Shown here: positions 23,233-64,000 of the stretch, piece by piece | Position numbering within the stretch: position 1 is the first letter of the stretch | How the letters are laid out: every line of letters starts with the position of its first letter | Assembly: GCA_022794015.1 (NCBI GenBank) | Contig: JAAWDZ010000011.1 | Location: 23,910-87,909, forward strand | Direction of reading: 5' to 3' | DNA length: 64,000 nucleotides | Source: Eubacterium sp. | Lineage (GTDB): Bacteria > Bacillota > Clostridia > Lachnospirales > Lachnospiraceae | Notes under the pieces: model-generated | Database searches by the model: none | Seen by the model: only the letters and a program-made list of their open reading frames with translations | Told to the model about the DNA's origin: nothing | Position numbers and translations under genes: made by a program

Positions 23233-24585
23233 ATGGGAAGTCGTATGGATATGATAAACGGTTCATTGGGAGATAAGATTATCAAATATGCAATACCGCT
23301 TGCTGTGACAGGTGTGTTACAGCAGTTGTTTAATGCAGCAGATCTGGCAGTGGTCGGACACTTTTCCGGTAAGGAGGCTATGGCGGCGGTGGGAAGCAAC
23401 GCTCCTGTCATAGGTCTTTTGGTCAATCTTTTTGTCGGGATTTCTCTGGGGAGCAATGTTATGATTGCAAAATCTATTGGTCAGGGAGATAACGGGAAAA
23501 TTTCAAAGACAGTACATACATCGGTGATTGTGGCTTTGTTCGGAGGGTTGTTCCTTACAGTGCTGGGTGAGTTATTGGCTCCTGGAGCTGTAAAAATGCT
23601 GGATGTTCCAGGAGAGGTATATCCGTTGGCAGTTAAATATTTGCGGATCTATCTGGCAGGGATGCCGGTGATTTTGCTTTATAACTTTGAAGCGGCAATT
23701 TTCCGAAGCTGTGGAAACACTCAGACGCCGTTGGTTGCTCTGGTGGTTTCCGGTATTTTGAATGTTATCCTCAACCTGTTTTTTGTCCGGGGATTGGGGA
23801 TGGATGTGGATGGAGTTGCCACAGCAACCGTGATTTCCAATCTTGTCAGTTCGGCAATTTTGTTTGCGGCATTGGTAAAGACGGAACTGGCCATTCAAAT
23901 CAATCCACGAAAGCTGCGGGTACATTGGGATGTATTGGGGCAGATTCTGAAAATTGGGGTTCCTGCGGGCATACAGGGAATGATTTTTTCATTTGCGAAT
24001 ATCATTGTCCAGTCGGCAGTTAACAGTCTGGGTACGACAGTCATGGCAGCATCTTCGGCGGCCTTTAATCTGGAAATTTTTTCCTATTATATTATGAACT
24101 CTTTTGGTCAGGCGTGTACGACATTTACAGGACAGAATTACGGGGCCGGGAAGGGTGACCGCTGCCGGAAAGCGTTGAAGCTCTGTTTGCTGCAGAGTGC
24201 AGTGAGTACTGCGGCAGTCAGCTGCCTGATCCTGCTGTTTAGCCGGCCTCTGCTAAGTATTTTTAATACCGATCCGGATGTAATTGCAGCAGGACGGATT
24301 CGACTGGAATATATTTTCTTTGCGTATTTGTTCAGCTTTGCGCAGGAAGTGCTGTCCGGCTATTTGAGAGGCTTTGGCGTTTCCTTTATTCCGGCGGCCT
24401 GCTCGGTAATCGGCATCTGCGGCGTGCGGCTCACATGGATTTTTACCGTGTTTAGTCAGAAGCCGTCCTTTGCAACCATTATGCAGGTATATCCGCTGAG
24501 CCTGGGAATCACGGCGGCGGTCATTCTGACAGTAACGCTGTTTGTAAAACCATCGAAAAGATATATCGTACATCCAGAACTATAA
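23233..24585 (+). CDS. MATE-family efflux transporter
   Basis: A 450-residue multidrug and toxin extrusion protein with about twelve membrane helices in two homologous halves; the N-terminal half has NAADLAVVGHFSG and the segment around FRSCGNTQTPL, and the second half has GQNYGAGKGDR. These exporters use Na+ or H+ gradients to expel cationic compounds. GAAGGGG precedes ATG 23233. Its 3' end overlaps by 6 bp the end of a converging LysR gene that appears frameshifted. Substrate unknown. Confidence 0.92.
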   Translation: MGSRMDMINGSLGDKIIKYAIPLAVTGVLQQLFNAADLAVVGHFSGKEAMAAVGSNAPVIGLLVNLFVGISLGSNVMIAKSIGQGDNGKISKTVHTSVIVALFGGLFLTVLGELLAPGAVKMLDVPGEVYPLAVKYLRIYLAGMPVILLYNFEAAIFRSCGNTQTPLVALVVSGILNVILNLFFVRGLGMDVDGVATATVISNLVSSAILFAALVKTELAIQINPRKLRVHWDVLGQILKIGVPAGIQGMIFSFANIIVQSAVNSLGTTVMAASSAAFNLEIFSYYIMNSFGQACTTFTGQNYGAGKGDRCRKALKLCLLQSAVSTAAVSCLILLFSRPLLSIFNTDPDVIAAGRIRLEYIFFAYLFSFAQEVLSGYLRGFGVSFIPAACSVIGICGVRLTWIFTVFSQKPSFATIMQVYPLSLGITAAVILTVTLFVKPSKRYIVHPEL

Positions 24586-25507
24586 AAGCAGGTTTGCCTT
24601 TGAAATATTGCCTGATTTTGAACAATGCCCTCTTGCATTTTCTAAAAAAATTTCTGCAGCCTTTGAAAGCGGCTGGCGACGCTTCCATACCAAATGATAT
24701 GTGATTTCCCCGGCATAAGACACTGGTTTGAAAGATATGCTGCGATCTGTTTTTACATGAATGAAACTGGGGGACAATGCGCAGGCTAATCCTTTTTTTA
24801 CAAATGGGAATATGCTGTAATCCATATTGCAGGACGCGAAGATATTCAGATTCTGCAAATCTTCACTCATCCATTCCGAAAGGAGTTTTTGCAGGTAAGG
24901 GTTTTGAGGGATAATCAAAGGAAAGGCTTTTAAATCCTCTGGCCCGATGCCTGTGTTTGCGGTCAGGGGATGATCTGCTGACATTAGTATGCCCCAGGTG
25001 GCGGTAAAAGGAAGCGTCAGTTGGGAATATTTTAAAGGGCTAAAATTTTGGGGGGGGGGAGGGGATGGCAAGCAGTCCAAAGTCCAGCATACCTGTTTCT
25101 AATTGTGTTAAGATGTCGGGAATAGCGCCTGTTTGAAAATGATACCGTATATCAGGGTATTCCGATTGGGTATGGTCTGTAATTTCAGCAATAGCATCCA
25201 TTGATACCAGATCCGCTGCGCCAATGGAAATCTTTCCACTGATCTTTTTCCCTTCACCGGAAAGTTCACGTTCTGTTTCTTCTATCAGGGATATAATCTC
25301 TTTTGCTCTCTTTTTCAGTAACTTCCCTTTGTCTGTAAGAAAGATTTTTCTTTTGCCGCGAATAAGCAGCTTTGTCCCAAGCTCCTGCTCTAAGTTTATC
25401 ATCTGTTTGGAAAGGGAAGGCTGGGCAATGTGCAGGGCTTTTGCTGCTCGTGTAATATTCCCCTCTTTTGCAATTGCTAAAAAATATTTTAATACACGTA
25501 TATCCAT
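24580..25507 (-). pseudogene. LysR-family regulator split by a G10 tract (frameshift or phase-variable)
   Basis: Two minus-strand frames together make one LysR protein. The first (25507 down to about 25040, starting MDIRVLKYFLAIAKEGNITR) has the N-terminal helix-turn-helix and the start of the effector domain. The second (about 25080 down to 24580) has the rest of the effector domain. They join at a run of ten C on the coding strand (25050-25059). With nine C the frame is continuous and gives about 308 residues, a normal LysR length. With ten, translation stops soon after the tract (ending PPPKF). Both halves look otherwise undamaged, so slipped-strand phase variation or a sequencing error fits better than old decay. 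Target genes unknown. Confidence 0.8.
25050..25059. repeat. G10 homopolymer tract inside the LysR gene
   Basis: Ten consecutive G on the plus strand (C on the coding strand), followed by A and four more G. Tracts of this length are prone to slippage. The frame arithmetic shows that tract lengths divisible by three keep the LysR reading frame open; ten closes it. Confidence 0.9.
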
Positions 25508-58060: not shown

Positions 58061-58903
58061 ATGAGCCATATATTGACAGATGAGAAACTGACAGGTTTTG
58101 AACAGAAATTGCGGGAGGAGGAATATGGGGCGGCAACCATAGAAAAGTATTTGAGGGAGCTGAGAAGTTTTCAGGTATGGATGGACGGCAGGACTGTAGA
58201 TAAAGAAGCGGCAACCGAATTTAAATCATATTTACAGAAAGAAAATTATGCACCTGCTACAGTTAATTCGAAACTCTCTGCCATAAATGGCTTTTTTGGA
58301 TTTATGGGATGGGAAGAATGCAGGGTGAAATTTCTACGGATTCAAAAACAACTTTTCAGGAATGAGTCAAAAGAACTAACCAGAGAGGAATACGAAAGGC
58401 TTAGAAAAGCGGCTGAAGAAAAGGGGAACAGAAGGCTGGCGCTGCTTATGGAAACAATCTGCGGGACAGGCATCCGGGTCAGCGAAGTTCCTTATATTAC
58501 AATAGAAGCGGCGAAGCGGGGAAGGACAGAGGTGAACTTAAAAGGAAAAGTGCGTATGATTTTTTTGCCGAAAAAGCTGTGCGGTAAGCTTTTGGAATAT
58601 GCGAAAGGGCAAAAAATTGATTCGGGAGAAATTTTTCGGACAGGAGGCGGAAGGGGGCTTTCCAGAAGGCAGATATGGAGAGAGATGAAAGGGTTATGTG
58701 AAATGGCCAAAGTGGAGGAAACAAAAGTGTTTCCCCATAATCTCCGTCATTTGTTTGCAACGGTTTTTTATGGGATAAGCAGGGATATTGTTAAGCTGGC
58801 CGATATGTTAGGGCATAGCTCCATTGAAACAACAAGGATTTATTTGAAAACAACCGGTGAGGAGCATATGCGTTATTTGGAGCGTATGGGGCTGGTGACA
58901 TAG
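58061..58903 (+). CDS. Tyrosine site-specific recombinase, candidate invertase
   Basis: A 280-residue phage-integrase-family recombinase. The N-terminal SAM-like core-binding domain (about 1-90) is followed by the catalytic domain with Arg in GTGIRVSE (about 139), HNLRH (about 225), and LGHSSIETTRIYL with His and nucleophile Tyr (about 260). ATG 58061 follows GGAGG. The stop codon lies inside a dyad-shaped sequence that recurs inverted at 59135-59155, so its product probably inverts the segment in between, as RecV does in Clostridioides difficile. It carries no excisionase or phage genes nearby. A Xer-type housekeeping role is less likely. Confidence 0.88.
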   Translation: MSHILTDEKLTGFEQKLREEEYGAATIEKYLRELRSFQVWMDGRTVDKEAATEFKSYLQKENYAPATVNSKLSAINGFFGFMGWEECRVKFLRIQKQLFRNESKELTREEYERLRKAAEEKGNRRLALLMETICGTGIRVSEVPYITIEAAKRGRTEVNLKGKVRMIFLPKKLCGKLLEYAKGQKIDSGEIFRTGGGRGLSRRQIWREMKGLCEMAKVEETKVFPHNLRHLFATVFYGISRDIVKLADMLGHSSIETTRIYLKTTGEEHMRYLERMGLVT

Positions 58904-58957
58904 ACGGAATTTATATTCTGTCTACAAAAACAGGACATAAAATTCCATAGTTTTCAT

Positions 58958-58987
58958 ATTATACCATATTTAGTGTATTACTGACAA
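58958..58987 (-). promoter_or_regulatory. Promoter inside the invertible segment, now facing the recombinase
   Basis: On the minus strand, TTGTCA (-35, 58982-58987) and TATAAT (-10, 58958-58963) are 18 bp apart. As drawn it reads into the 3' end of the recombinase gene, antisense. After inversion it would start near 59111 and read into the diguanylate cyclase with a leader of about 90 nt. Confidence 0.7.
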
Positions 58988-59017
58988 CACAATCTGAAAA
59001 TTTAGGGCATAGAAAAC

Positions 59018-59053
59018 AAAAGTCATGAAAAATTTTTTTGGCTTTATTTTTTT
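59018..59053 (+). terminator. Terminator-like hairpin inside the invertible segment
   Basis: AAAGTCA pairs with TGGCTTT around an A-run/T-run inner stem and is followed by T-rich sequence. In the present orientation it would stop read-through from the recombinase into the cyclase gene. Weak stem, so moderate support. Confidence 0.4.
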
Positions 59054-59200
59054 ATGTCCCAAAACAGATTTGCCCAAAACTTATGAAAAGACAGATGCAT
59101 TTTCACGATAAGAAAGGTCTTTTCTTTTATGATGTGTAGACAGAATATAAAATTCGCATACAGATGCCTGTGACGGGAAGTGGATGTGGGGGGAGTACAA

Positions 59201-60172
59201 TTGAAAAAGAATGGAAATTCGGTGGATAAACGACAGAAAACGGGCGATCTGGATGGACTTACAGCTGTTTTGAAGGCTGATATCGCCGAGCGGCAGATTA
59301 GAACGGTATTGAGCAGGGAACGCGGCGGTACACTTTTTCTGTGTGATATGGACGATATGGAAAAGATCAATTGGCAGTATGGGCATCTGAAGGGAGATGA
59401 GTGCCTAAAGCAGATGGCTGAGATTCTCTCTTACATGGTTCGGCCGGAAGATATCCTGGGCAGATACGGGGGCGACGAGTTCCTGATTTTCATGCCAGGC
59501 TGCCGGGATATGCGGCAGGCGCAGGAGATCTGCATGCGTATGGAGAACCGTTTTCGCAGGGCAGGAGGAAACGATGGGAAGGGAATTTCGTTTTCTGTGA
59601 CTGTGGTATGGGCTCTCTGGCAGTCGGGAGATACCATAAAGAAGCTGTTCGAGCGTGTGGAAGAAAAGCTGGAAGAACATAAAACAGCGTCAGGGGGGAC
59701 AAAGAAGCAGAAAAAAGGAAGACAGGATCATTATGTCAAGGATGTCAGGCGGGTTCGAAAGGAACTGATGGAACAGATTCGGGAATCTGGAGCGTATTGT
59801 CAGGATTATGAGACCTTTAAGAGTATCTATCGTTTTTTGGAACGCGGGATCATAAGGAGCGGGCAAAAAGCATGTGTGATTCTGATCACAGTAGTGGATG
59901 GACAGGGAGCGAGTTTGCTGCCTCATGAAAAGGATGTGCGGATGGAACAACTGGGGGAGGATATCGGGACGACACTTAGAATCGGGGATGTGTATACCAG
60001 ATATTCCAGCAGCCAGTATCTGCTCCTTGTGATTGATACGACAGAAGGTCAGGCGGATCGGATTGTGAACCGGATTCGGGAACAGTTTCTGGCGCATGCA
60101 CAAGAGGATAATATTTTGATTCATCATTGTTATGAGCTTCAGCCTGCGCAAACAGAGGCGCTGATGGAGTAA
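59201..60172 (+). CDS. Diguanylate cyclase with second degenerate GGDEF-like domain
   Basis: A 323-residue soluble protein. The GGDEF domain (about 35-165) has the intact active site GRYGGDEF and an RPED product-inhibition site five residues before it, so it should make c-di-GMP. A second domain (about 190-320) contains IGDVYTRYSSSQYLLL, a degenerate GGDEF-like motif also found at the end of the next gene's product. Likely start TTG 59201, with GGGGAG five bases upstream; GTG 59180 is possible. No sensor or membrane segment is visible, so control may be by expression through the upstream switch. Confidence 0.85.
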   Translation: MKKNGNSVDKRQKTGDLDGLTAVLKADIAERQIRTVLSRERGGTLFLCDMDDMEKINWQYGHLKGDECLKQMAEILSYMVRPEDILGRYGGDEFLIFMPGCRDMRQAQEICMRMENRFRRAGGNDGKGISFSVTVVWALWQSGDTIKKLFERVEEKLEEHKTASGGTKKQKKGRQDHYVKDVRRVRKELMEQIRESGAYCQDYETFKSIYRFLERGIIRSGQKACVILITVVDGQGASLLPHEKDVRMEQLGEDIGTTLRIGDVYTRYSSSQYLLLVIDTTEGQADRIVNRIREQFLAHAQEDNILIHHCYELQPAQTEALME

Positions 60173-60200
60173 GAAAACGAGTACGGAGGAGAGATAAGCT

Positions 60201-61403
60201 ATGATGGGGAAAAAGTTATCGGTGAGGATGTTTGGCGGATTTTCTGCCACTTATGGAGATGAGGTGCTTACCTTTGGCAGACAGAGAGATTCCAAATTCG
60301 GACAGCTGTTTCAAATCCTGATGACCAGGCCCGGACAGGGATTTAGTAAAAACTATATTGCAGAAAGCCTCTATGAACGGGAAGAAGTGGAGGATTCCAA
60401 TGCGAGCCTTAATAATACGATCTTTCGCTTGCGAAAATATCTGGAATCTTCGCCACTTCCGTCCGGCGAGTATCTGCATCTGAACGGAGGCGTGCTGTGT
60501 TTTGACGGCGGGGTTGACATAGAATCAGACGTGTGGCGGTTTGAAAGCGCAAACCGGGAATATCAACAAGAACAGAACGCGCGTCAAAAAGCGGAACTCT
60601 GTGGAAAAGCCTGTAAGCTTTTCCGGGGAGAGTTTCTGCCGCAGTTGTCCAATGAGCAGTGGGTTATAGAAAAAAGTCAGAGTTATCATAAGGCATATGC
60701 CGGGATGTTGGAATATTTGCTTCATTATCTGAAAGAGGAGGGCGACTACAGGAGTGCAGAACAGGCAGCGGCCTGCGCGTCTGCGATTTATCCCTACGAA
60801 GGATGGGAGGCATGGCAGATTGAGTGTCTGATCCTGCTTGGGCGTCATAAAGAAGCAGAAGAACTTTATCAGAAATTGGCGCTGTATATCCAGGAAACCA
60901 GTGGGTTTCTGTCCCAAAAGCAGCAGGCACGTTTCCGGGAGATTGGAGCCAGGATACGGTATTCGGAGGGGGCAGAAGGAGATATCAGCAGGTGTTTGAT
61001 GGAACCTGTGTTTAAGCAGGGCGCTTATGCCTGTACGCTTCCTGGTTTTTCAGATTGTTTCCGTATGTTGAAGCGCGTGAATGTAAGAGGAGGAGTAAAA
61101 TCTTTTGGGCTTTTCCTGTGTACAATACTAGATGACGACGGCTGTCCGGCCAGTGACCGGAGATACTGTGAGCGGCAGGGAAAGAAGCTGTGTGCGTCGT
61201 TTGAATCTTATCTGCGCAGAGGGGATATCTATACAAAATATAGTGAAAGCCAGTACTTGCTGCTGTGCATCGGAGCCAAAAATGAGAATGCCGCAAGGAT
61301 CGGGGAGCGGATTGATATGGATTTTCGGAAACGATGCGGTGGACACGGCGGGGTAAGCTGGAGGATGTTGGATGATGGAGATGAGTTTTCAAATACGCTG
61401 TAG
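60201..61403 (+). CDS. BTAD (SARP-like) regulator with degenerate GGDEF-like C-terminus
   Basis: A 400-residue regulator. An N-terminal OmpR-like winged helix (about 5-100, SVRMFGGFSATYGDE; LNNTIFRLRKYLE) is followed by a BTAD tetratricopeptide region (about 105-265) and a C-terminal domain (about 285-395) with RGDIYTKYSESQYLLL, the same motif as the cyclase's second domain. It probably activates nearby genes, perhaps after sensing a nucleotide. ATG 60201 follows GGAGGAG, 28 bp after the cyclase, so they form an operon. The surface protein gene 236 bp downstream is a likely target. Confidence 0.8.
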   Translation: MMGKKLSVRMFGGFSATYGDEVLTFGRQRDSKFGQLFQILMTRPGQGFSKNYIAESLYEREEVEDSNASLNNTIFRLRKYLESSPLPSGEYLHLNGGVLCFDGGVDIESDVWRFESANREYQQEQNARQKAELCGKACKLFRGEFLPQLSNEQWVIEKSQSYHKAYAGMLEYLLHYLKEEGDYRSAEQAAACASAIYPYEGWEAWQIECLILLGRHKEAEELYQKLALYIQETSGFLSQKQQARFREIGARIRYSEGAEGDISRCLMEPVFKQGAYACTLPGFSDCFRMLKRVNVRGGVKSFGLFLCTILDDDGCPASDRRYCERQGKKLCASFESYLRRGDIYTKYSESQYLLLCIGAKNENAARIGERIDMDFRKRCGGHGGVSWRMLDDGDEFSNTL

Positions 61404-61639
61404 ATAATTGAGAAGGCAGTTTGTGGGATTTTTGTGAATGAAAATCTTTTGGAAAAAACAAATTCTTATATTCTGAAAAAATAAATGCATTAAACAAAGG
61501 AAATGAAAGAGTTCACGAAAGAGTTTCTTTGATATACTGTAGCAAACAAAATGATTAGTCTGAAAAAGGGCGAGGAGTATGTACAGAAATTTGGCTATTG
61601 AATTTAGAAAAAGGCCAGAACAGAATTATAGGAGGTAAT

Positions 61640-64000
61640 ATGAGTAGGAGAAACAGCAGAAAGAGTAAAGCCGATAAAGTATTAAAAGCGGTTGGCGCTA
61701 CAGGCATCATTCTGGGTGGGGCTGCGATCGATGCAAATATGGTATTTGCAGAGGAACTGGAAAATATGGCAGAAGAACAGCAGATAGAAGATGCTGTCGC
61801 AGAATTAGAGGAAACTGCCAAGGGTTCGGAAGCGCTTTTTGAAGAGCCAAAGGAAGAATGTGATGTTGAAAGCGCAAGCACTGAAAACGCTGCGGTCGTT
61901 GGGACCAGTGCAGAAGAATCAGTCAGCGAAGCGCCGGGAACCGAAACGGTTGCGAATGAAAACGTCAGTGATGAAACAACCAGTGAAGAAACCGGGGATG
62001 AAAATGTCAGTGATGAAACAACCGGTGAAGAGACCGGAGATGAAAATGTCAGTGATGAAACAACCGGTGAAGAGGCTGGGGATGAAAATGTCAGTGATGA
62101 AACAACCGGTGAAGAGACTGGCCGTGAAGATGCCAGTAATGAAACGGATAGCCAGCAGACCTGGAGTGAGGTAGAATCTACCTCAGTATCAAACCTGAGT
62201 GATGCGACATCCGATTCTGACAGATTTCATGCGGAAAGCGAATCTGCGTCGGCATCTGCATCACAGAGTGCATCTGCTGTGGAATCTGTATCTGAATCGA
62301 ATTCGATGAGTGCATTTGAAAGTGATTCAGACGCAGTGTCTACGAGTGAGTCTAACAGCCAGTCGCTTAGTAATTTTGAGAGTACGCGAGACTCGTTGTC
62401 TGAGAATTTTACCAGCGAACAGTCAACGGCGCTGGATTCCTACAGTGCAGCGTTGTCTACCCTGACTTCTCAGTCGGTGACGGGGACAGAGGATCTGGCT
62501 GGCTTCCAGAAAGAAGTGGCTGAGAGTATTATCAATTACAATATCGTTACCAGCGGCGGCAGTGTGGACAGATTTGAATGGAGCGATGAGAACGGCGGCT
62601 ATTATACAGTTTATTATAAGGATAATGAGGGAAGGGAACTCACTCAGGTTTATCAATACTCAGTGGATACTGAGGGAAAAGTGACCGTTAATGAGGCGAA
62701 AGTATCTTATAAGCCAACAGGCGGTGATAAGGTAACAGTATCAAATAATGTGAACAGGCCTACAACGGAAACTTTGCCTGGCGCTACTGCACCGACGATA
62801 GATTATAAGATTGTAAACAACACCAATGGCACAACGGATGTTTATGTTACGATCAATGGGACGGTGTATAAGAATCCAACGAGACAGATTAATCCTGACG
62901 GGACAATTTCTTATATTCTTGAAGATACCGCTACCGAACGTAAGATGTTTGTTGTAAATGCAGACGGATCGAGCGGTTATTATAAAACATACAATAAAAC
63001 AAATCAATTGTTAAATAACTCCAATGGGAGTACAAATACATCGACTTTTAAGGTCAATGGTAACTCTTATACTGTTGCAGGAGGAACTGATGCTCTAATT
63101 AGCGCAAATAGCCGTAAGTATGCTGTCGTACAGGATCAGGATGGCAGATGGCATAAACTTGTTGTAACTGGAACAAATAAACAACTTGTAATAGGCGGTA
63201 ATGGAAATTTTTATATTCAGGCGGGAGGAGTAGGTTCTTATACAAAGATTGGCAGCGATTATACATTAAAGACAGATGCGAACGGTAATTATGGTCTGTA
63301 TGATAAAAATGGTAGGTTAGTGTATTCACTTACGATTTCGGAAGGTGTCGATTATACTCCAAAAGCAACCACAACGACTTATAATTTTGACAGAACAATT
63401 GAATCGAAGGGTGAGGTGACTGGTACCGATAAGGCCATGGAGGCTTATAAGGCGATAAAGGAAGCTTCGGAGACAATTAGTGAGGCTAGCGAGCAAGTTA
63501 GCATGAGTGAAAGTGTAGTGGAATCACTTAGCAAATTGAATTCTACATCTTCGAGCGAAAGTGCATCAAAAGCTTCGAGTTTGAGTGAAATCAACAAAGA
63601 GGACCTGGATAGTGCGTCAAACAGTTTTAACAGTGTTAGTGAGTCGAATTCTGAATCGCAGTCAACTTCTTATGAGAGTGCATCTTTAAGCTTAAAAGCA
63701 AGTGAGGAAGCAAGCACGAGTGAATCGGTAAGTACAAGCGAATCAATAAGTACAAGTGAAAGCATCAGTACAAGTACAAGTGAAAGTATTAGCATAAGTA
63801 CGAGTGAGTCGATAAGTACAAGTACAAGCGAGTCAATTAGCACGAGTACAAGCGAATCAGTAAGCATGAGTGAATCGGTAAGTACAAGTGAAAGCATCAG
63901 TACAAGTACAAGTGAAAGCATCAGTACAAGTACAAGTGAAAGCATCAGTACAAGTACAAGTGAAAGCATCAGTACAAGTACAAGTGAAAGCATCAGTACA
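61640..64000 (+). CDS. Serine-rich repeat surface protein, 3' end outside the window
   Basis: An open frame from ATG 61640 (GGAGG eight bases upstream) continues to the window end: 787 codons without a stop. Order: basic N-terminus and signal peptide (about 1-38, ending near VFAEE), an acidic part with four 14-residue repeats (about 108-163), a Ser-rich spacer, a beta-rich ligand-binding-like region (about 280-600), then a growing Ser/Thr repeat of the type STSTSESI. This is the build of serine-rich glycosylated adhesins. The cell-wall anchor and any glycosyltransferase or accessory Sec genes would lie beyond 64000. Confidence 0.85.
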   Translation, partial: MSRRNSRKSKADKVLKAVGATGIILGGAAIDANMVFAEELENMAEEQQIEDAVAELEETAKGSEALFEEPKEECDVESASTENAAVVGTSAEESVSEAPGTETVANENVSDETTSEETGDENVSDETTGEETGDENVSDETTGEEAGDENVSDETTGEETGREDASNETDSQQTWSEVESTSVSNLSDATSDSDRFHAESESASASASQSASAVESVSESNSMSAFESDSDAVSTSESNSQSLSNFESTRDSLSENFTSEQSTALDSYSAALSTLTSQSVTGTEDLAGFQKEVAESIINYNIVTSGGSVDRFEWSDENGGYYTVYYKDNEGRELTQVYQYSVDTEGKVTVNEAKVSYKPTGGDKVTVSNNVNRPTTETLPGATAPTIDYKIVNNTNGTTDVYVTINGTVYKNPTRQINPDGTISYILEDTATERKMFVVNADGSSGYYKTYNKTNQLLNNSNGSTNTSTFKVNGNSYTVAGGTDALISANSRKYAVVQDQDGRWHKLVVTGTNKQLVIGGNGNFYIQAGGVGSYTKIGSDYTLKTDANGNYGLYDKNGRLVYSLTISEGVDYTPKATTTTYNFDRTIESKGEVTGTDKAMEAYKAIKEASETISEASEQVSMSESVVESLSKLNSTSSSESASKASSLSEINKEDLDSASNSFNSVSESNSESQSTSYESASLSLKASEEASTSESVSTSESISTSESISTSTSESISISTSESISTSTSESISTSTSESVSMSESVSTSESISTSTSESISTSTSESISTSTSESISTSTSESIST
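61961..62128 (+). repeat. Four 42-bp tandem repeats in the adhesin gene
   Basis: Units start at 61961, 62003, 62045 and 62087 with an exact 42-bp period and encode NVSDETTGEETGDE with few changes. The acidic repeats lie just after the signal peptide region. Confidence 0.88.
63702..64000 (+). repeat. Serine-rich short tandem repeats, continuing past the window
   Basis: Repeats built on a 24-bp unit that encodes STSTSESI, with shorter variants (SESVSTSE) at the beginning. The last hundred bases are nearly identical copies, as in slippage-prone adhesin stalks. They cross the window edge. Confidence 0.88.

What the first reader, a model, noticed from the sequence alone, without database searches (positions are those of the whole stretch)
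58061..64000. Candidate recombinase-driven ON/OFF switch for a c-di-GMP, SARP-like regulator and giant adhesin locus
Seen: a tyrosine recombinase gene, then inverted repeats 58907-58926 and 59135-59155 (17 identical bases plus a gapped extension) around a 208-bp gene-free segment, then a diguanylate cyclase, a BTAD regulator and a serine-rich surface protein. The segment holds TTGTCA-18-TATAAT on the minus strand, pointing away from the cyclase. Known: RecV-type tyrosine recombinases invert promoter segments before surface and c-di-GMP genes in Clostridioides difficile. Inference: inversion puts this promoter about 90 nt upstream of the cyclase start, switching on the cyclase, the regulator and, indirectly, the adhesin. 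The window shows the OFF form. The combination with a BTAD regulator carrying a GGDEF-like tail may be undescribed.
Basis: partly seen in the sequence, partly recalled or inferred. Interest (0 to 1): 0.93.

Follow-up and report, generated by a model that had tools for sequence, protein, structure and literature searches.

The report
Invertible promoter before c-di-GMP–adhesin circuit
In an unnamed bacterium a recombinase gene sits beside a short promoter-like segment bracketed by inverted repeats, and flipping that segment would likely switch on together an enzyme predicted to make the signal c-di-GMP, a regulator predicted to sense that signal, and, probably through the regulator, a giant serine-rich surface protein.

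Summary
Inverted repeats (22 nt, 91 %; 17 identical) bracket 208 bp between a tyrosine recombinase and a diguanylate cyclase gene; 0 of 5,000 shuffles gave as good a pair. A promoter-like extended -10 site inside points away from the cyclase. Of 81 copies of this recombinase family with enough DNA behind them (own included), 71 have an inverted-repeat pair just behind the gene, against 5 of 91 before it. An invertible-promoter switch, assembled OFF, is very likely; inversion itself was not observed.

New here: the regulator is a SARP (AfsR-like) activator with a GGDEF-fold tail that lost the active site but keeps the RxxD of the c-di-GMP I-site (115 of 121 sequences). The adhesin promoter has a 12-bp direct repeat at the -35 position, shared with a second species and unique in both genomes. 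The adhesin likely heads an SRR/accessory-Sec locus continuing on another contig. In that second species no recombinase or repeat stands beside the same cassette; its promoter spacer holds a G10 tract instead. A new variant of a known kind.

The parts
58061..58903 (+). tyrosine recombinase (280 aa), likely the cis-acting invertase
   Evidence: Phage_integrase 2.5e-20; R139 K163 H226 R229 H252 Y261 kept in 120-121 of 121 aligned sequences, own included (the catalytic set is recalled)
58905..58926 (.). left inverted-repeat arm (likely recombination site; exact core 58910-58926)
58927..59134 (.). 208-bp segment expected to invert
58958..58987 (-). promoter-like site TTGTCA-18-TATAAT with extended -10, in the OFF orientation; by arithmetic the -10 would lie at 59098-59103 (+) after inversion
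59135..59156 (.). right inverted-repeat arm (exact core 59135-59151)
59201..60172 (+). predicted diguanylate cyclase with a second, degenerate GGDEF-like domain (ORF listing start GTG 59180)
59441..59482 (+). RPED-x5-GGDEF: I-site-like and intact active-site motif
59753..60136 (+). degenerate GGDEF-like domain (RIGD kept, GGDEF replaced by SSSQY)
   Evidence: R and D in 121 of 121 sequences; beta-alpha-beta-beta-alpha-beta order in the model; 35 % identical to the activator's tail
60201..61403 (+). SARP-type (wHTH + BTAD) activator with GGDEF-fold tail
61026..61394 (+). GGDEF-fold tail of the activator, RRGD-x5-SESQY
61505..61523 (+). 12-bp direct repeat GAAAGAG-N5-GAAAGAG, candidate activator operator at the -35 position
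61533..61540 (+). TATACTGT, candidate -10 of the adhesin promoter; no consensus promoter found here
61640..64000 (+). serine-rich repeat (SRR) adhesin, cut by the contig end; the locus likely continues on contig C5

Best explanation
The segment 58927-59134 is likely a phase-variation switch in which the adjacent recombinase would invert a promoter, so that one flip would turn on a predicted diguanylate cyclase and a predicted c-di-GMP-reading activator, which would in turn start the giant SRR adhesin locus. Shown by sequence: recombinase with a complete catalytic set, repeats, promoter-like site pointing away (OFF), cyclase and activator 28 nt apart, adhesin behind a separate stretch that has no consensus promoter but a SARP-like direct repeat before a TATACT. 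Inferred: inversion; after it the -10 lies at 59098-59103 and transcription would begin about 90 nt before the cyclase start. Inferred: the cyclase raises c-di-GMP; the activator binds it through the RxxD of its GGDEF-fold tail, binds the GAAAGAG repeats and recruits RNA polymerase to the adhesin promoter; SecA2/SecY2/Asp1-3 export and GtfA/GtfB glycosylate the adhesin. Cells in the OFF phase would lack both signal and reader, so the population would split into adherent and bare cells.
For: Repeat pair beyond chance (0 of 5,000) and unique in the assembly. 73 of 95 family copies (own included) have an inverted-repeat pair within 350 nt behind the gene; with at least 500 nt of DNA there, 71 of 81, against 5 of 91 before the gene. 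The 37 strongest promoter-like sites in those segments face away in 31 and towards the cargo in 6; 29 of the 31 and 3 of the 6 lie 48-77 nt from the outer end of the repeat they face (window: 48). Contigs end within 400 nt behind the recombinase more often than before it (14 against 4 of 95). Cargo of the same switches elsewhere includes another GGDEF protein followed by a PilZ glycosyltransferase (L102), an EAL protein (L113), signal peptidases and LPXTG/FctA/choline-binding surface proteins. Cyclase and activator appear to travel together: 27 of 120 listed activator clusters share their longest-contig length with a listed cyclase cluster, 19 distinct lengths of at least 4,500. SARP plus GGDEF folds, RxxD conservation, operator, adhesin/accessory-Sec locus.
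Against: No inverted read, strain or contig of this species was seen. Ten of 81 family copies with enough DNA lack a recognisable repeat pair. The promoter count in the window alone does not beat shuffles; only 28 of 72 segments beat 95 % of their shuffles, and half of the 6 strong cargo-facing sites lie outside the usual distance. The contig-end excess is weak (two-sided p 0.03); five of the 14 are from one genome, G043. The closest contiguous cassette (G340) has no recombinase in the 19 kb fetched and no repeat pair before it, though G340 has two family recombinases on another contig; in G449 the cyclase has no activator in the 19 kb fetched, and a family recombinase about 3 kb behind it has no repeat pair. 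So the switch is not an inborn part of the cassette. Close cyclase relatives (E <= 1e-50) are rare: 6 of 397 family genomes, own included. c-di-GMP binding rests on RxxD alone. The I-site R of the catalytic domain is kept in only 71 of 121 sequences. The activator's Trans_reg_C match is just under its cut-off (25.6 against 26.2 bits).
Confidence: 0.72

Rival explanations
1. The switch is real, but the GGDEF-fold tails do not bind c-di-GMP: they serve as dimerisation or protein-contact domains, or bind another nucleotide. The cyclase then acts globally, and the activator works whenever it is made.
For: Only the RxxD motif speaks for binding; the tail is 6-19 % identical to the solved GGDEF domains listed. 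The activator's more distant relatives (28-36 % identical) often have no cyclase gene beside them.
Against: RxxD is kept in 115 of 121 activators (other 6 gaps) and 121 of 121 cyclases while GGDEF is gone, the pattern expected if the I-site is what selection keeps; cyclase and activator clusters share contig lengths.
Confidence: 0.3
2. A former switch, now locked: the recombinase or its sites are dead in this strain and the promoter stays OFF; the adhesin is run from elsewhere or silent.
For: The two arms differ outside the 17-nt core (91 %), whereas many relatives have perfect arms of 20-29 nt. Only one orientation is assembled.
Against: All six catalytic residues are present; the frame is open; 31 listed protein clusters 71-82 % identical exist.
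Confidence: 0.12
3. The recombinase is an integrase or Xer-type enzyme that acts elsewhere and the repeats are a chance pair or a transcription terminator.
For: Best NCBIfam matches are Xer-type.
Against: All Xer scores are under cut-off (XerA 143.6 against 220, XerD 116.8 against 329.6 bits); arms lie 208 nt apart, no terminator-like hairpin was found; family-wide linkage.
Confidence: 0.05
4. The switch is real but the adhesin is not its output: the activator serves other genes and the adhesin sits next to it by chance.
For: One further operator match (2 mismatches) exists in the genome, on C57, but inside a 341-aa reading frame.
Against: Same order cyclase-activator-adhesin-SecY2-like-Asp1 in G340; the spacing from repeat to TATACTGT is identical in both species and the exact pattern, drawn from these two sites, occurs nowhere else in either genome.
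Confidence: 0.1

Closest known systems
Clostridioides difficile pdcB (Cdi2) and pdcC switches (PMC9286219, passages read; PMC5903667, passages read)
   Same: A short segment (Cdi2: 174 bp, imperfect 19-bp repeats) holds an invertible promoter before a c-di-GMP enzyme gene; the reference genome has pdcB in the OFF form.
   Different: There the gene is a phosphodiesterase, the segment lies 840 bp upstream, and the recombinase is not linked (unidentified in one paper, RecV partly required in the other). Here it is a predicted cyclase with its own predicted reader and one adhesin locus, and the recombinase is next door.
Inverton group 139 / invertase group 35 of the hCom2 gut community (PMC11892184, section 8 and passages read)
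   Same: Clostridia invertons with a nearby tyrosine-type recombinase; the Clostridium sp. D5 example has 26-nt arms 205 nt apart, the geometry of this family, and its orientation ratio shifts over culture passages.
   Different: Whether our recombinase belongs to group 35 was not tested; the supplements could not be opened. The main text has no occurrence of GGDEF, diguanylate or serine-rich.
AfsR and other SARP activators (PDB 8k60, 8hvr; review PMC10972967, passages read)
   Same: wHTH plus BTAD fold; target sites are direct repeats overlapping the -35 region.
   Different: C-terminal GGDEF-fold tail; operator period 12 bp, not the classical 11; homologues named by sources are Lachnospiraceae and kin, not Streptomyces.
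I-site c-di-GMP effectors with degenerate GGDEF domains (PelD, PopA and the like; recalled)
   Same: Active site lost, RxxD kept.
   Different: Here the domain is joined to a DNA-binding SARP activator.
SRR glycoprotein / accessory Sec loci of streptococci and lactobacilli (recalled; NCBIfam models)
   Same: Serine-rich adhesin followed by SecY2, Asp1, Asp2, Asp3, SecA2, GtfA, GtfB.
   Different: Preceded by a cyclase, a SARP activator and, here, a promoter switch.

Membership tests
Invertible-promoter phase-variation switch with linked tyrosine recombinase | active-looking tyrosine recombinase | tested here: met
   R-K-H-R-H-Y all present
Invertible-promoter phase-variation switch with linked tyrosine recombinase | short non-coding segment between inverted repeats beyond chance | tested here: met
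Invertible-promoter phase-variation switch with linked tyrosine recombinase | outward promoter inside the segment | tested here: inconclusive
   strong match by sequence, 11 of 12 with TG, PWM 16.2 against 6.9 on the other strand, but one hit does not beat shuffles and activity was not tested
Invertible-promoter phase-variation switch with linked tyrosine recombinase | both orientations found in one species | not testable with these tools
   no reads; one genome per species
RecV group | clusters with C. difficile RecV in a tree | not tested
   RecV sequence was not obtained
XerC / XerD | score above the equivalog cut-offs | tested here: not met
   XerD 116.8 of 329.6, XerC 110.7 of 335.15 bits
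SARP (BTAD) activators | wHTH plus BTAD fold | tested here: met
SARP (BTAD) activators | direct repeats over the -35 of the target promoter | tested here: met
   by sequence in two species; binding not tested
Active diguanylate cyclase | GGDEF domain with intact active-site motif | tested here: met
   enzyme activity not testable
I-site c-di-GMP effector | GGDEF fold, lost active site, kept RxxD | tested here: met
I-site c-di-GMP effector | binds c-di-GMP | not testable with these tools
   needs protein
SRR glycoprotein / accessory Sec locus | SecA2, Asp1-3, GtfA, GtfB beside the adhesin | tested here: met
   all six above cut-off on contig C5, which begins inside a serine-rich 3' end; C16-C5 link inferred, contiguous as far as Asp1 in G340
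SRR glycoprotein / accessory Sec locus | SecY2 | tested here: inconclusive
   best match is SecY2 but 219.8 of 353 and 193.2 of 249.6 bits

The most novel reading that the evidence does not exclude
The same cassette has been made phase-variable twice by unrelated means, by an invertase here and by a poly-G promoter spacer in G340.
Probability: 0.45. Interest if true: 0.87.

Novelty: new variant of a known kind. Interest (0 to 1): 0.74.

Why it matters
Phase-variable control of c-di-GMP has been worked out in C. difficile for a phosphodiesterase (PMC9286219, passages). Here the flip would act on a private circuit whose signal, reader, operator and output lie side by side, so local versus global c-di-GMP signalling becomes directly testable. 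It also offers a candidate new class of c-di-GMP-reading transcription factor (SARP with a GGDEF-fold tail), with 162 protein clusters at E <= 1e-10, and a rule for how such bacteria may vary their largest adhesin. The recombinase family is very large (7,957 of the 8,000 candidates scored have E <= 1e-60) and its repeat-behind-the-gene rule lets candidate switches be read straight from genomes.

Tried and rejected
Looked for the inverted form in relatives: the 321-bp switch region matched only its own genome in full; nine other genomes of 397 gave matches of 24-49 bp. None of the 14 other genomes of the genus has a close activator (best 33 % identical). Searching viral contigs for the cyclase gave nothing. 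A search around G340 (245 genomes, E <= 1e-90) found only G340; in 397 family genomes six, own included, have the cyclase at E <= 1e-50. No Rfam family reached its gathering score in the window, so no known riboswitch. No PDB chain matched the activator profile by sequence. An intrinsic terminator inside the segment was considered and not found. The 2-mismatch operator match on C57 was judged chance. Comparing orientation by DNA similarity between relatives: L122 and L124 are 99.6 % alike in the same orientation, so uninformative. Contig-length matching of the 120 listed recombinase clusters with cyclase/activator clusters gave only 6362 (all three) and 38153 (recombinase and activator), plus 1501 and 1772, too short to hold both genes. 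Searches behind 'apparently not in print' (listings seen unless passages are named).
Full report
What is there. The window is part of an unnamed draft genome (G000, 2.78 Mb, 81 contigs, 86 % complete) and ends where contig C16 ends. Source names given for its proteins' relatives include Lachnospiraceae bacterium, Hungatella, Acetatifactor and Schaedlerella; a gut origin is inferred. Between a choloylglycine hydrolase gene on the other strand and the contig end lie, in order: tyrosine recombinase 58061-58903, inverted repeat, 208-bp spacer, inverted repeat, GGDEF protein (likely TTG start 59201), SARP/BTAD protein 60201-61403 only 28 nt behind it, a 236-nt gap, and a serine-rich protein from 61640.

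Is it chance? The arms (22 nt, 91 %; 17 identical) were not matched in any of 5,000 shuffles of the intergenic DNA, and with up to 2 mismatches the 17-nt core occurs nowhere else in the assembly. The promoter-like site on the minus strand matches 11 of 12 consensus bases and has an extended -10, but one such hit is not above the number in shuffles; its weight comes from the comparison below.

The recombinase family. One tblastn pass over the stretches I fetched gave 95 distinct copies, the window's own included. They come from the clade members listed plus L034; by my count 42 rows, mostly the lower-scoring ones, were not fetched, and several genomes supply many copies (G043, G060, G206, G310). 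73 of 95 have an inverted-repeat pair (score 14 or more) starting within 350 nt behind the stop; 12 of the other 22 have 213 nt or less of DNA left. Counting only copies with at least 500 nt of DNA, 71 of 81 have the pair behind the gene and 5 of 91 have one before it. Typical arms read ACATAAT-N4-ATTATGT with extensions; the window's left arm reads GGAAT-TTAT-ATTCTGTCTACA. In 72 segments (one of 73 left out for undetermined bases) the best promoter-like site faces away from the cargo in 59 and towards it in 13. Of the 37 with score 12.5 or more, 31 face away and 6 towards; 29 of the 31 and 3 of the 6 lie 48-77 nt from the outer end of the repeat they face. A near-constant position in the away form is clear; that the same promoter is caught in the towards form rests on few cases. 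Only 28 of 72 beat 95 % of 60 shuffles of their own spacer. With a 2-unit margin the labels were 43 OFF, 7 ON, 23 unclear. Contigs end within 400 nt behind the gene in 14 copies and before it in 4 (p 0.03); as five of the 14 are from G043, this is only a hint of mixed orientation in the sequenced populations.

Cargo. In 68 first genes of at least 130 aa behind these switches (69 found for 73 segments; the near-duplicate L122 left out; the window's own included) the commonest Pfam family is signal peptidase S26 (8), then DUF7601 (5); there are LPXTG, SpaA, FctA, LRR_5 and capsule families, 2 GGDEF (the window's and L102's) and 1 EAL. L102's GGDEF gene is followed by a glycosyltransferase with a PilZ domain. 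So c-di-GMP genes recur as cargo of this switch type, though rarely.

The adhesin. Contig C5 of the same genome begins inside a serine-rich 3' end that closes with a hydrophobic and then basic stretch (by eye), followed by SecY2-like, Asp1, Asp2, Asp3, SecA2, GtfA, GtfB and a glycosyltransferase. In G340 the order cyclase, activator, serine-rich protein of 1,496 aa, SecY2-like, Asp1 is on one contig. So the adhesin is likely an SRR glycoprotein with its own export and glycosylation system; the C16-C5 link is inferred. Between activator and adhesin, both species have GAAAGA-N6-GAAAGA-N10-TATACTGT; in the window no consensus promoter was found there (0, shuffles mean 1.1; not scanned in G340). 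The pattern was drawn from these two sites, so their exact match is by construction; the result is that it occurs nowhere else exactly. With up to 3 mismatches there is 1 more in G000 and 2 more in G340, where the reversed control also gives 2. SARP sites are heptamer direct repeats over the -35 (PMC10972967, passages).

A second route to phase variation. G340 has no recombinase in the 19 kb around the cassette and no repeat pair before it, though two family copies lie on another contig. Its likely promoter TTGACT-19-TATAAT has ten G in the spacer, the layout of slipped-strand promoter switches in Neisseria (recalled). G/C runs of 9 or more number 11 in the 1.65 Mb of that tally, this one counted twice (L189 and L195). 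It is one assembly, so a read error is possible.

Verdict. The switch is very likely (about 0.9); the circuit through c-di-GMP to the adhesin is likely but untested (about 0.6-0.7). It works like the C. difficile pdcB switch, but with a linked recombinase, a predicted cyclase instead of a phosphodiesterase, and a predicted dedicated reader and output; whether the recombinase is kin of RecV was not tested. In the open-access library five papers hold both BTAD and GGDEF and none, by its listing, is about such a fusion, and one paper holds both 'invertons' and 'c-di-GMP' (listing); most papers of subscription journals are not in that library.

Noticed in passing
window 25050-25059 (24580-25507, minus strand): A run of ten G (C on the coding strand) lies where a LysR-family regulator is split into two overlapping frames (HTH_1 in one, most of the LysR substrate domain in the other), next to a 1,385-aa GH3 family protein; a candidate slipped-strand contingency gene, or a sequencing error.
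   Followed up: partly
L195 (G340:C31), reverse complement 7819: G10 tract in the promoter spacer before the same cyclase-activator-adhesin cassette.
   Followed up: partly
L122 and L124: A recombinase switch segment is 99.6 % identical in two genomes assigned to different genera, suggesting recent transfer or contamination.
   Followed up: no
census loci: In 59 of 72 segments the best promoter-like site points antisense towards the recombinase gene; this could damp the recombinase in the OFF phase.
   Followed up: no
L136, L138, L142, L152: Other activators with the same tail stand before giant VWA/SpaA/DUF7601 surface proteins, often with a small protein of about 160 aa or a signal peptidase between.
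   Followed up: partly
L135 (G000:C20:7714-8934): The genome has a second activator of this type (29 % identical), near a 1,280-aa protein.
   Followed up: no
G043 loci L114, L119, L123: Recombinase copies with longer spacers of about 467 bp and a second, related recombinase reading frame behind them.
   Followed up: no
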